Shown piece by piece: positions 312-63,717 of a stretch of DNA of 64,000 nucleotides. Numbering within the stretch: position 1 is the first letter of the stretch; each line of letters begins with the position of its first letter. The stretch lies in assembly GCA_013995675.1 (NCBI GenBank), contig VWRR01000005.1, forward strand, positions 306,001 to 370,000, written 5' to 3'. The DNA is from Cyanidiococcus yangmingshanensis. Its lineage: Eukaryota > Rhodophyta > Bangiophyceae > Cyanidiales > Cyanidiaceae. The notes under the pieces were generated by a model. The model did no database searches. It saw nothing but the letters and a program-made list of their open reading frames with translations, and was not told the DNA's origin. Position numbers and translations under genes: made by a program.

Positions 312-1667
312 TCAGGGATGTTTTGCCCGCTCGGCAGCAGTGCCCACAGTCGTGTTATTGGGAGCGGACTCGTCTCGGTACGGTCCATAACCTTTCCCAT
401 ACTCATTCACGGTGGCTTTCAGATCCGCATCCACGGCCATCTCTCGATCCATCTCTTTCAAGGCCTGACTCGTCGTCCTCCCGATGAGCAGTAACACGGC
501 TACTGTTGCGGCAAGTCCAACCACCAAAAGCGCTGTATTCACGCCGCTTCCCTCAGAGGTCAGCTCAGTTGCAGCACCCTCGATGACCCGGCTGGCGACA
601 CTCTCAAGCACTGCGTTTCCAGTGTGTCCAGCGTACACATAGGCCAGCGTCCCAGGCAACATACCTAGCCAGCTTGCCAGCATATAAGGAACGAAACGTA
701 CACTCGTTATCCCGTAGAGGTAATTGCTCGCAGAAAAAGGCAAGAGCGGACTTAGGCGCAACAGCAACACAATTTTGAAGCCCTCCTTTGCAACCGCCCT
801 ATCAATCACTCGAAAGCGAGGAAACTTCGATGCCAATTTCTCCTGGATAAAGTTGCGCAGGAAATATCTCGAAAGAAGAAAAGATGTCCCTGCTGCCGCA
901 GTAGCGGCTGCGGAAGATACAACGAGCCCCCGCCAAACCCCAAAGAGGTAGCCGGCCCCGATGGTCAACATCAATGCCGGGAAGGACACCAATTCAAGTA
1001 AATAGTAGAGACCCCCGTAGTAGAAAACTGCCATCGGTCCAACGGACTCGAACCATTTCACAAGATCATGCAAGTTGTCGATTGAAAGTGTTCTTAGAGA
1101 ATGCCCTATCACTGAGACTGCTCCGATGGCACCGCCTGCTAGGGCGAAGAGGTAGAGTGTGCGCTTCAGGGAGCCACGACCCGCTTTTGCGCTGTTCCCA
1201 TTAGACTCAGACTCGACGCTCGCCAGCAAGCTCGGCAGGGTCAAGACGTTGCGCAGCAGCGGGTGCTTGGTTTTCGCCCTTGCAATCGATTCACTCTTTG
1301 TTGAATTTGACATCCCCTGTTGTCGCCACAATCGTCGTGAGGCACGCGCTGTCGCAGACCGCCTACTCCGCGCGTCTTCACGATGGGGCTGGTGTCCGTG
1401 TCGATCCGGTCTCGACCACCTCCACGCTGGCGCCGAACTCCTGTCGGCGTCAAGTCTACCGGTGCAGTTACTCACTGCAAGCGAATGACACCAAAAAGCC
1501 GCTGAGGTCTTGGCTCGTGCTCGACTAAGAGGGAGCGCTTCGATTCTCGTTCCAGCCAAGACCGCAAACCCGAAGGCCACGCCAAACGGCCTCGCAGTCT
1601 GTTCCGTGTGCAAACCGTGTTGTGTAGACCACAAAACTTGAAGCGGTGCTTCCCGTTTCGAAAGCAT
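312..1667 (-). CDS. TVP38/TMEM64 (DedA/VTT-domain) family membrane protein
   Basis: Polytopic membrane protein of the SNARE-associated Golgi/DedA group, whose members act in lipid scrambling or membrane homeostasis; exact function is unknown here. The VTT core lies about 210-370 residues into the longest ORF: FPALMLTIGAGYLFG, then a hydrophobic stretch, then LLRLSPLLPFSASNYLYGIT with the Arg-Pro-Pro spacing typical of TVP38 proteins, and a last hydrophobic segment near the C-terminus. The ORF opens with ATG at 1667, but its first 118 residues are Arg/Ser-rich and poorly protein-like. A second ATG at 1313 (MSNSTKSES) may be the true start, giving 333 residues. Cyanobacterial-like DedA proteins in algae can be plastid-targeted, so the N-terminal part could be a transit peptide; this is inference. 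Divergent from the linker gene at 3426. Confidence 0.8.
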   Translation of the reverse strand: MLSKREAPLQVLWSTQHGLHTEQTARPFGVAFGFAVLAGTRIEALPLSRARAKTSAAFWCHSLAVSNCTGRLDADRSSAPAWRWSRPDRHGHQPHREDARSRRSATARASRRLWRQQGMSNSTKSESIARAKTKHPLLRNVLTLPSLLASVESESNGNSAKAGRGSLKRTLYLFALAGGAIGAVSVIGHSLRTLSIDNLHDLVKWFESVGPMAVFYYGGLYYLLELVSFPALMLTIGAGYLFGVWRGLVVSSAAATAAAGTSFLLSRYFLRNFIQEKLASKFPRFRVIDRAVAKEGFKIVLLLRLSPLLPFSASNYLYGITSVRFVPYMLASWLGMLPGTLAYVYAGHTGNAVLESVASRVIEGAATELTSEGSGVNTALLVVGLAATVAVLLLIGRTTSQALKEMDREMAVDADLKATVNEYGKGYGPYRDESAPNNTTVGTAAERAKHP

Positions 1668-3425
1668 GCAATCCGCTACGGATCAGTATTCCGTCGCACA
1701 AGGATGCCACCGTTCAAGAGCTCGTGCAGGGCTCACAAGATTTTCAGTCACAGTGGCGCAGATTCGCCGGTGACATGCACGTTGTGGATGGTGGCGGAAC
1801 ATGGCCCAGGGTGTCCAGCACCGGCAGCAGCCGAACGGCATCGAAACCAACGGAGGCGCTGCGCGATCGCACAGGCACGCGCCGCTGGATGAATGGGTTG
1901 TTCAGTGCGCCGCATCCGGGGAGGCGACGATCACGTTTTGTCGAGCGTGCTTGGTTGAAGAACGCAGATTCAGGGCGTTTTGAGAAGAACTTGCGCTCGA
2001 ATGATCTACCTGGAAATTCGTCTTTCAGTGAAAATTTCTTGATCGGTTGACGGAAAGTTTGATTTGGTGCGCTCAGGTGCCACGCATATGCATCCTCTCG
2101 TCATCATGCGATCATGATCGTAGACGTGTTGGGCGCAAGCCACGGTTTTCGCTGGAGCACGACATCAGACTCTGGGCAGCGGCGCCAACGGATCAGCTTA
2201 TAGGTTCTTCCTAGAGTCCGATTCTGGTCTACGTGAATAGCGTCTTCTTGTGAGATCATTCTGCTTGCGTCTGTTGCAGTTTTACCGCCCTATGACATGC
2301 GTACCGCCATCGGATAAATAGCCGTGAAAAGTGGTGCCAACAACCACGGTAACCCCGAAACGGACGGTTGCGTGATGGTGGATTGCGTGCGAACAGCGTC
2401 TCGTTCTGCATCAATGTCCGCAGGGAGCCAGAGTCACGAGCGACAAACCTGTAGCGTCTCTGAGCAATCATAAAATCTCACTCAGGGCGTGTGATTCTGG
2501 AAAACAGGCATCTTTTTCCAAAGAGGTACATCGACACTGCAAAGGGACAGTTGCTTCACATGACAGGTTTGATTGAACAAGCCCATTCGTGTCCTTTTTT
2601 AGAGACTGTATTCATCATCATATTAATCAACGGCATTTCCCGCTACTGAGGGAATCCAATCGATGTGTCGCCTGCTTCTCGAGCTCTCATAGCGATCGCC
2701 CATAATAAAGTTTTCCTGAACATGCTCGAGATCATCCACCGGATACCTCGTTGCGAGCGAGACCGAGGGACAAATCGATATGCATGAAGATCGAACGCAG
2801 GACCAACAACAGGGCTAGGATACTATTTGAAGGGAAACAGATCAACTCGGAATCCAATCAAGTTTCTGATATGCAATCGTTCTGAGGATCATCAATATTT
2901 TGCTTCTTTCAGGAGCGCTTGATGATCACAGCATATGCCAAGAGCCTGCGTTTGTAGACTACCAACAGCAGCTTACATATGGCAGGGACACGACACGGGC
3001 TTTTGTCGACCTCTGCCTCATCGAGACGATTCGGTCATCATGCAGCCGGGATCGGCCCTGAGGGAAAGCCGCCGTGACACAAGAATCTCGATGGTCCCGC
3101 CCAGACTCTTCGTTTGGGAACCGCCGCAGCTCCTGGAGGGAATTCCTCTATGAAAGACATTTGCTGTCGCAATTTCCGGGAGGGAATCTGCGGTCGCGCG
3201 CTCCGTCTCCGCGCGCCGCTCGTGGATGCGCTCATCGGATGCGCTAACACCAGCGATCATTGCGTGGCCCGGGGCACCTCGCGAGCGCCGTGCCCCTCCG
3301 GCGTGAGCACAACGCGCGATCTCCGGCGACCCTTTTGGATTCGGCCGTCGCTTGGGCATCGTCGAGACGGATATTGGCGTTCTATTGTCCTCGGACAGCT
3401 AACTCTGATCGGAAACACTGCAAAC
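1668..3425. other. Divergent intergenic region, no gene recognised
   Basis: Separates the starts of the TVP38-like gene (-) and the phycobilisome linker (+). An AT-richer patch lies near 2580-2660. The linker frame is open upstream to 3114 with an ATG at 3150, but this part looks like leader rather than protein. Confidence 0.4.
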
Positions 3426-63102: not shown

Positions 63103-63717
63103 ATGCTCGGAAGCGCGTTTGTGAGTTCTGTGCTATATCACGCGCATCCTCAGTTAGGGATCCAGAGATCCTTTCCAAGTTTATTTCAGCGCGGCAACAT
63201 TCGCACCAGAGTAGATTCACCCTGGGGGGTACGTTCGAGAGGCCGCTCGCTGGCTAGTCGCTTCTTTGAGAGCGAGAACCGCGCGTTTTGCTCTATGATG
63301 AGTCAGGGCAACACTTCTGAAGTGAAGGACTGGCGTGGGCTGACAGAGGAGGAGTGGAAAGCGCGCTTGACACCGAAGCAGTTTGAAGTAGCTCGCAAGG
63401 GCGGCACGGAGCGGCCCTTTACTGGTGAATACTGGGACAACAAAAAGCCCGGAGTGTATCGTTGCGTCTGTTGTGGGACACCTCTGTTTTCAAGTGAGAC
63501 TAAGTTTGATAGCGGGACGGGTTGGCCGTCCTATTGGGCACCGCTAAGCAAGGACGTTGTCCAGGAACGTTTGGATTTATCGCACGGCATGATGCGGACG
63601 GAGGTGTTGTGCGCGACCTGCGATGCGCACCTGGGACATGTGTTCCCGGATGGGCCCATGCCAACTGGCAAACGATACTGTATGAATTCGTATTCTTTGA
63701 CATTTGAACCCAAGTAA
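63103..63717 (+). CDS. MSRB: Peptide methionine (R)-S-oxide reductase (MsrB), organelle-targeted
   Basis: Repairs methionine-R-sulfoxide in oxidised proteins. 204 residues from ATG 63103. The MsrB domain starts near residue 80: LTEEEWKARLTPKQFEVARK, GTERPFTGEYWDNKKPGVYR, then the zinc pair CVCCG, FDSGTGWPSYWAP, LCATCDAHLGHVFPDGP with the second zinc pair, and the catalytic Cys in RYCMNSYSLTF. The catalytic residue is Cys, not selenocysteine. The first 75 residues are basic and Ser/Phe-rich (MLGSAFVSSVLYHAHP), consistent with a plastid or mitochondrial leader. A possible internal start is the Met pair near 63295 (MMSQGNTSEVKD). Confidence 0.95.
   Translation: MLGSAFVSSVLYHAHPQLGIQRSFPSLFQRGNIRTRVDSPWGVRSRGRSLASRFFESENRAFCSMMSQGNTSEVKDWRGLTEEEWKARLTPKQFEVARKGGTERPFTGEYWDNKKPGVYRCVCCGTPLFSSETKFDSGTGWPSYWAPLSKDVVQERLDLSHGMMRTEVLCATCDAHLGHVFPDGPMPTGKRYCMNSYSLTFEPK

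What the first reader, a model, noticed from the sequence alone, without database searches (positions are those of the whole stretch)
312..63717. Neighbouring genes alternate strand almost without exception
Going left to right the strands read - + - + - + - + - + - + - + - + - + - + - + - then three + bestrophins, then - +. This counts the small ORF at 10407, and treats Fpg/EF-hand and the ARM-ankyrin/coiled-coil pieces as single loci. The two same-strand pairs are inside the tandem bestrophin array. Random orientation would give about half same-strand pairs. Such a layout of shared 5' and shared 3' regions is not a standard feature of eukaryotic chromosomes and suggests selection on bidirectional promoters or against read-through between genes.
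Basis: seen in the sequence. Interest (0 to 1): 0.78.

Follow-up and report, generated by a model that had tools for sequence, protein, structure and literature searches.

The report
Alternating gene directions in red alga
In this compact red-algal genome neighbouring genes tend to point in opposite directions, nearly always in this stretch and about two times out of three in the other stretches sampled, a mild habit already hinted at in a sister alga and probably linked to tight gene spacing.

Summary
The window lies in a 12.07-Mb, 20-contig genome of a Cyanidiococcus-like red alga. The alternation is real. From Pfam, homologues and a coding HMM I count 27 window loci; 23 of 26 neighbour pairs are on opposite strands. 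Two of the three same-strand pairs are the tandem bestrophins; the third (NCA2/Fpg) arises because the ORF at 10407 has no homologue. In 280 kb elsewhere, 33-34 of 106-107 pairs are same-strand (31-32%; 95% CI about 23-42%; p 9e-5 to 3e-4 against one half). So the bias extends beyond the window but is about 2:1, not "almost without exception"; the window is an extreme stretch (Fisher p about 0.05). The estimate depends on merging genes split by frame changes: without merging it is 45-49%. Spacing and Pfam domains support merging. The 80 kb from four other contigs point the same way but are not significant alone (9 of 28 or 10 of 29). Same-strand pairs are rarest at short spacing. I favour compaction that tolerates shared 3' or 5' gaps but not close tandem promoters; promoter sharing is not shown. 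Less random gene direction in the sister genus Cyanidioschyzon was noted in print in 2010 (PMC2871058).

The parts
312..1682 (-). VTT-domain membrane protein gene
   Evidence: Pfam PF09335 93.8 bits
3078..4637 (+). phycobilisome linker gene
   Evidence: Pfam PF00427, PF01383
6396..7118 (-). gene related to proteins carrying PF11789 (zf-Nse; NSE2/MMS21 name recalled)
   Evidence: two homologues, 91% and 49% identity
8194..10322 (+). NCA2-like gene in two frames
   Evidence: Pfam PF08637 176 bits in 8706-10322; HMM joins 8251-10322
10407..10940 (-).
   Evidence: no homologue among 27 candidates; below Pfam cutoff
11622..13428 (+). Fpg/MutM-type DNA glycosylase followed by EF-hand ORF in another frame; one gene or two
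   Evidence: Pfam PF01149, PF06831, PF13499
13663..14511 (-). PEMT/ICMT-like methyltransferase gene
   Evidence: Pfam PF04191 36.3 bits
14785..15138 (+). ribosomal protein eL31 gene
   Evidence: Pfam PF01198 131.9 bits
17736..22959 (-). FCP1-like CTD phosphatase (name recalled from the NIF then BRCT order), split by a frame change
   Evidence: Pfam PF03031, PF12738
23973..25130 (+). conserved hypothetical gene
   Evidence: 97% identical to CCYA_CCYA05G1572
25497..26168 (-). ubiquitin-conjugating enzyme gene, closest in the PDB to E2 C
   Evidence: Pfam PF00179 147.5 bits; PDB E2 C chains about E 1e-45
26868..27404 (+). ubiquitin E2 variant gene (UEV1/MMS2-like)
   Evidence: Pfam PF00179 55.2 bits; PDB UEV1/MMS2 chains E 9e-46 to 8e-42
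28187..28849 (-). ribosomal protein uL1 gene
   Evidence: Pfam PF00687
29728..30480 (+). glyoxalase-family gene
   Evidence: Pfam PF00903
30455..31750 (-). 3-dehydroquinate synthase gene
   Evidence: Pfam PF01761, PF24621
32211..32894 (+). probable gene without family
   Evidence: HMM call only; no Pfam, no PDB match
33987..34739 (-). TPR-like gene
   Evidence: HMM at a laxer setting; Pfam TPR below cutoff
35353..42617 (+). ARM-ankyrin ORF plus coiled-coil ORF, probably one gene with frame changes
   Evidence: Pfam Arm and Ank in 35353-38934, none in 39399-42617, no PDB match for the latter; HMM joins them
43565..45406 (-). AIR-synthase-related protein gene
   Evidence: Pfam PF00586, PF02769
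47083..48744 (+). myo-inositol-1-phosphate synthase gene
   Evidence: Pfam PF07994 408 bits
49265..49993 (-). light-harvesting/Hli-like gene (weak)
   Evidence: Pfam PF00504 below cutoff; PDB antenna and Hli chains E 0.0003-0.06; HMM call
50282..51295 (+). gene without family
   Evidence: hexamer score 27.1; HMM call; no Pfam, best PDB match E 0.08
51538..53086 (-). malate/lactate dehydrogenase, split by a frame change
   Evidence: Pfam PF00056 and PF02866 in two overlapping ORFs
54230..55576 (+). bestrophin paralogue 1
   Evidence: PDB bestrophins E 3e-22
56004..57440 (+). bestrophin paralogue 2
   Evidence: 51% identical to paralogue 1
57918..59318 (+). bestrophin paralogue 3
   Evidence: 62% identical to paralogue 1
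60131..62005 (-). CBF/Mak21 family gene
   Evidence: Pfam PF03914
63103..63717 (+). methionine sulfoxide reductase B (SelR) gene
   Evidence: Pfam PF01641 179 bits

Best explanation
This is a depletion of same-strand neighbours, about one in three instead of one in two in the stretches sampled, seen in its most extreme form in this window. I think it is a consequence of genome compaction: two genes back to back can share or overlap their 5' control zones, and two genes tail to tail can share their 3' zones, so such pairs tolerate short gaps; two genes in tandem need a full terminator plus a full promoter, because read-through from the first would disturb the second. Rearrangements that put two unrelated genes in close tandem are therefore lost, and the chromosome drifts towards - + - +. 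Shown here: the depletion in the sample and its concentration at short spacing. Inferred: the role of read-through or promoter space, selection as the cause, and extension to the whole genome.
For: Outside the window 34 of 106 or 33 of 107 pairs are same-strand; window 3 of 26; all 37 of 132 or 36 of 133 (p 1e-7 to 5e-7). Counting also uncounted ORFs of at least 300 aa gives 37 of 109 or 36 of 110 (p 0.001, 0.0004). Depletion outside is greatest at short gaps: below 400 bp 2-3 of 19 (p 0.0007-0.004), 400-800 bp 9 of 32 (p 0.02), 800-1200 bp 8 of 21-22 (p 0.29-0.38), above 1200 bp 14 of 34 (p 0.39). Median gaps, window included: tandem 1064-1092, divergent 893-947, convergent 728-736; the 10% quantiles are roughly additive (convergent about 217 plus divergent about 273, tandem 452-462). 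No tandem paralogues at blastp E <= 1e-4 among 39-41 outside same-strand pairs, merged genes being translated in one frame only. Of eight genes added later with Pfam support above cutoff, five lie between same-strand neighbours of the strict HMM list and on the opposite strand, three between opposite-strand neighbours, none on the same strand inside a same-strand pair.
Against: The result depends on merging frame-split genes: with no merging the outside fraction is 45-49%, with a dearer frame shift 39-47%. Merging same-strand pieces closer than 150 bp removes any real tandem pair that close, so part of the shortest bin is by construction. Tandem versus divergent gaps alone do not differ significantly (p 0.09-0.20). 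Four other contigs alone: 9 of 28 or 10 of 29, p 0.09-0.14. Genes of 900 nt or more only: 26 of 67, p 0.086. No promoter or terminator motif stood out. Undetected small genes in long tandem gaps could explain their greater length.
Confidence: 0.45

Rival explanations
1. The bias comes from bidirectional promoters: divergent pairs share one control region and are kept together for co-expression; convergent pairs follow passively from geometry.
For: Nine of 48-49 divergent gaps (window included) are under 400 bp, short enough to share a promoter; one divergent window pair joins two related genes, an E2 C-like and a UEV1/MMS2-like gene (25497 - and 26868 +); PMC2871058 reports that conserved pairs are much more often divergent or co-directional than convergent (abstract and passages).
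Against: Convergent gaps are at least as short (13-14 of 47-48 under 400 bp); no upstream motif stood out; apart from the E2/UEV pair I see no evident shared function in the divergent window pairs (my reading of the family names).
Confidence: 0.2
2. Largely an artefact: same-strand neighbours are undercounted because close tandem genes were merged as frame-split genes, and the window was picked because it looked regular. True genome-wide orientation is close to random.
For: Without merging the outside fraction is 45-49%; other contigs alone are not significantly below half.
Against: Same-strand pieces under 100 bp apart number 16-21 against 0-1 opposite-strand pairs, which marks them as pieces of one gene; Pfam shows complementary parts of one protein in MutY and PPP5 (2 of 5 pairs tested; none was shown to be two genes), DNA polymerase epsilon and a photolyase and MDH, and a C-terminal CMAS half. 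Small genes found later mostly raise the opposite-strand count.
Confidence: 0.2
3. Historical accident: an ancestral gene order of Cyanidiales that happened to alternate was frozen by slow rearrangement, with no present selection.
For: 86% of genes are collinear among three Cyanidiales genera (PMC9812998, passages).
Against: Random inversions tend to half same-strand (inference); a frozen random order would not be expected to be biased over about 130 pairs, nor to depend on spacing.
Confidence: 0.15

Closest known systems
Less random gene direction in Cyanidioschyzon merolae, Monosiga brevicollis, Thalassiosira pseudonana and Cryptococcus neoformans (PMC2871058)
   Same: Departure from half co-directional pairs, in the sister genus; gene order largely shared within Cyanidiales (PMC9812998, passages).
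   Different: The passages read give no percentages or direction for C. merolae (its Table S1 and Figure S1 could not be opened); no spacing analysis for that species was seen.
Minimal regulatory spaces in yeasts (PMC3128071)
   Same: Compact genomes; convergent gaps shortest; deletion bias or compaction invoked (abstract and passages).
   Different: In the S. cerevisiae row read, old divergent gaps (mean 489) exceed unidirectional ones (412); here tandem gaps have the largest median (1064-1092 against 893-947), though that single contrast is not significant.
Co-oriented gene blocks of dinoflagellates (Amoebophrya, PMC7789003, passages; Symbiodinium, PMC8110479, search listing only)
   Same: Strand order along chromosomes is strongly non-random.
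   Different: Opposite pattern in Amoebophrya: long same-strand blocks.

Membership tests
Genomes with non-random gene direction (sense of PMC2871058) | Co-directional fraction away from about 50% | tested here: met
   34 of 106 or 33 of 107 outside the window, 3 of 26 inside; not met outside if split genes are left unmerged
Genomes with non-random gene direction (sense of PMC2871058) | Holds over the whole genome | tested here: inconclusive
   344 kb of 12.07 Mb examined; contig C16 outside the window 25 or 23 of 78, other contigs 9 of 28 or 10 of 29
Bidirectional-promoter genome organisation | Short divergent gaps in excess of convergent ones | tested here: not met
   divergent median 893-947, convergent 728-736; p 0.10-0.15, window included
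Bidirectional-promoter genome organisation | One promoter firing both ways in divergent gaps | not testable with these tools
   no transcript data
Tandem-interference avoidance | Same-strand pairs depleted most at short spacing | tested here: met
   2-3 of 19 below 400 bp against 14 of 34 above 1200 bp, outside the window; partly by construction below 150 bp
Tandem-interference avoidance | Read-through of upstream genes into downstream promoters harms expression | not testable with these tools
   needs RNA data

The most novel reading that the evidence does not exclude
Cyanidiales chromosomes are organised as an alternating string by selection against close tandem transcription: 70% or more of unrelated neighbours are on opposite strands genome-wide, the deficit of tandem pairs rises as spacing falls, and long alternating stretches such as this window (18 successive opposite pairs) are more frequent than the pair bias alone predicts (P 0.02-0.06 for a run of 18 in this sample; the window was chosen for its regularity).
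Probability: 0.3. Interest if true: 0.65.

Novelty: new member of a known kind. Interest (0 to 1): 0.42.

Why it matters
Most eukaryotes in the 64-species survey of PMC2871058 place neighbouring genes with no preference of strand. A small alga with few introns, little repeat DNA and a 2:1 preference for opposite strands offers a clean place to test whether read-through, promoter space or drift shapes gene order. It also bears on engineering these algae, where one recent preprint chose tail-to-tail gaps as neutral insertion sites (PMC12874030, passages).

Tried and rejected
Strict ORF-score caller: too few genes. First per-ORF table had a bug in the ORF start and was not used. The script stopped with an error after saving its scores, which and later calls read. 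ORFs in gaps as extra genes: one search lists 59 gap ORFs of at least 150 aa outside the window (count); 30 of the 59 went to Pfam, three of them cut at a locus border, and 1 passed its cutoff (LMWPc); 29 were not tested. So plain long ORFs were not counted as genes outside; counting those of at least 300 aa or 250 aa changes the outside result to 36-37 of 109-110 or 37 of 114. Rfam on the window and on 26 of 28 outside loci (L030 and L031 not searched) and ARAGORN in bacterial mode on the window and all 28 outside loci found no RNA genes. Upstream and downstream k-mers: nothing that stands out given the many words tested; ATG-containing words near stops are probably an artefact of start choice. 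Clustering of alternation: lag-1 correlation 0.07, p 0.53, on the list before the last merges. Literature: eight searches; six phrases for strand alternation gave 0 papers. Passages of PMC13353863 and PMC12633428 held nothing on gene direction in Cyanidiales. Supplements could not be opened, so the C. merolae percentages of PMC2871058 are unknown to me.
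Full report
What the window is. The genome search places the window at bases 306001-370000 of contig 16 of a genome of 12,072,675 bases in 20 contigs. A window protein is 97% identical to a hypothetical protein of Cyanidiococcus yangmingshanensis. The published Cyanidiococcus genome (CCYA) has 12.0 Mbp, 4832 genes, 36 introns and mean gaps of 929.7 bp (PMC9812998, passages; another passage there gives the sizes of Cyanidium and Cyanidiococcus in the reverse order). So this is a compact, nearly intron-free red alga, probably another strain or close relative.

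Checking the window. Pfam, homologue searches, PDB sequence searches and a six-frame HMM trained on the sequence itself give 27 loci. Strands run - + - + + - + - + - + - + - + - + - + - + - + + + - +. Three of 26 pairs are same-strand: NCA2/Fpg and the two bestrophin pairs. Two loci (Fpg/EF-hand, ARM-ankyrin/coiled-coil) could each be two genes, and the one at 32211 rests on the HMM alone. Bestrophin paralogues 2 and 3 are named through their similarity to paralogue 1. Without homology evidence the automatic callers give anything from 26% to 64% same-strand in the window, depending on how split and short genes are treated.

Checking beyond the window. I fetched 280 kb: C16:1-200000 and 20 kb from each of C5, C12, C1 and C19. 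Codon bias is weak here, so short real genes such as uL1 score little better than chance ORFs. The strict HMM gave 37 of 100 same-strand pairs outside. Two problems had to be settled.

First, split genes. With frame shifts forbidden the outside fraction was 45-49%; with frame shifts at moderate cost 35-38%; in between 39-47%. Same-strand pieces fall into two classes: 16-21 pairs less than 100 bp apart, and a second class spread like the opposite-strand gaps, of which 0-1 are under 100 bp. Pfam on five such pairs showed complementary parts of one protein in two (MutY, PPP5), a likely third (Sec6, whose profile starts at position 106), one with no family, and one undecided (adenylate kinase with NAD kinase). 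DNA polymerase epsilon in three matched pieces (the link of DUF1744 to it is recalled) and a photolyase in two followed, and the C-terminal half of a CMAS enzyme (the preceding ORF was not searched). I therefore merged same-strand pieces closer than 150 bp, the two cases, and two pairs with overlapping stop-to-stop frames.

Second, missed small genes. Of 59 gap ORFs of at least 150 aa outside, 30 went to Pfam and one passed its cutoff. A search of all outside gaps for ATG-started ORFs with coding score listed short candidates. I chose nine by eye, with eL31 as tenth: uS9, eL34, an RRM protein, Dad4, PsbW, the ferredoxin-thioredoxin reductase alpha chain and a DUF1823 protein passed their cutoffs, a CHCH protein fell below its cutoff (it is counted at one HMM setting only), and one had no credible match. 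Ten short HMM genes outside were also checked: all ten had a match at E < 0.1, seven above cutoff.

Result. With these rules 34 of 106 or 33 of 107 outside pairs are same-strand for two HMM settings (32.1% and 30.8%; p = 2.8e-4 and 9.2e-5). By contig: C16 25 or 23 of 78; the other four contigs together 9 of 28 or 10 of 29, p 0.09-0.14. Adding uncounted ORFs of at least 300 aa, which lie on C16, C5 and C19 and each add a same-strand pair, gives 37 of 109 or 36 of 110 (p 0.001, 0.0004). Using only genes of 600 nt or more gives 32 of 90 or 30 of 88 (p 0.008, 0.004); 900 nt or more, 26 of 67 (p 0.086). No adjacent same-strand pair outside matched as a tandem paralogue, with merged genes translated in one frame only. 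The window differs from the rest at Fisher p about 0.05, and a run of 18 alternations in this sample has probability 0.02-0.06 under independent pairs at the observed bias; under that bias 1.5-4.4 such runs are expected among 4800 pairs. The window is thus the extreme end of a mild bias.

Mechanism. Because a convergent pair must be followed sooner or later by a divergent one, the two kinds are about equally frequent by geometry and cannot be told apart by counts. Spacing helps: outside the window same-strand pairs are 2-3 of 19 below 400 bp and 14 of 34 above 1200 bp. Median gaps, window included, are 1064-1092 (tandem), 893-947 (divergent) and 728-736 (convergent); only tandem versus convergent is significant (p 0.003-0.009). 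The 10% quantiles are roughly additive (217 plus 273 against 452-462), as expected if tandem gaps must hold one terminator and one promoter while opposite pairs can share. This is my preferred reading, held at less than even odds; missed genes in long tandem gaps, and the merging rule in the shortest bin, push in the same direction. No promoter or terminator motif stood out. One divergent window pair does join related genes, an E2 C-like and a UEV1/MMS2-like gene, which favours promoter sharing there.

What is known. PMC2871058 (abstract and passages) states that about 50% of pairs are co-directional in most of 64 eukaryotes and that Cyanidioschyzon merolae is one of a few with less random direction. 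I could not open its table. PMC9812998 reports 86% collinear genes among three Cyanidiales genera (passage), so an inherited pattern is expected. In yeasts (PMC3128071, abstract and passages) convergent gaps are shortest and, in the S. cerevisiae row read, tandem gaps are shorter than divergent ones, unlike here. None of the eight searches listed under Tried and rejected showed me a paper on strand alternation in Cyanidiococcus.

Noticed in passing
window 51538-53086 and 17736-22959; L022:6363-7764; L018:5111-6707; L027:1072-6583; L030:3443-7165: Many genes of this assembly are broken into abutting ORFs by frame changes (MDH, FCP1-like, MutY, PPP5, DNA polymerase epsilon, photolyase). In MDH the two domains join with almost no spare residues (profile positions), which looks like small indels in the assembly rather than introns.
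   Followed up: partly
L021:416-649 (-): A 77-aa gene matching DASH complex subunit Dad4, a kinetochore protein best known from fungi (the last point recalled).
   Followed up: no
window 25497-27404: Divergent pair of an E2 C-like ubiquitin-conjugating enzyme gene and a UEV1/MMS2-like gene, about 0.7-0.8 kb apart: a candidate shared promoter between related genes.
   Followed up: partly
window 54230-59318: Three tandem bestrophin paralogues, 51% and 62% identical to the first; a search of the whole genome with the first gave three candidates, all three of them these genes.
   Followed up: partly
window 29728-31750: Glyoxalase-family and 3-dehydroquinate synthase ORFs overlap tail to tail by 26 bp.
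   Followed up: no
L031:2117-2779 (+): A trefoil (P-type) domain protein gene next to a flavin amine oxidase-like gene in a red alga.
   Followed up: no
window, whole: GC content 52.7% against 55.6% in C16:1-200000; the strict HMM missed 5 of 23 reference loci in the window.
   Followed up: no
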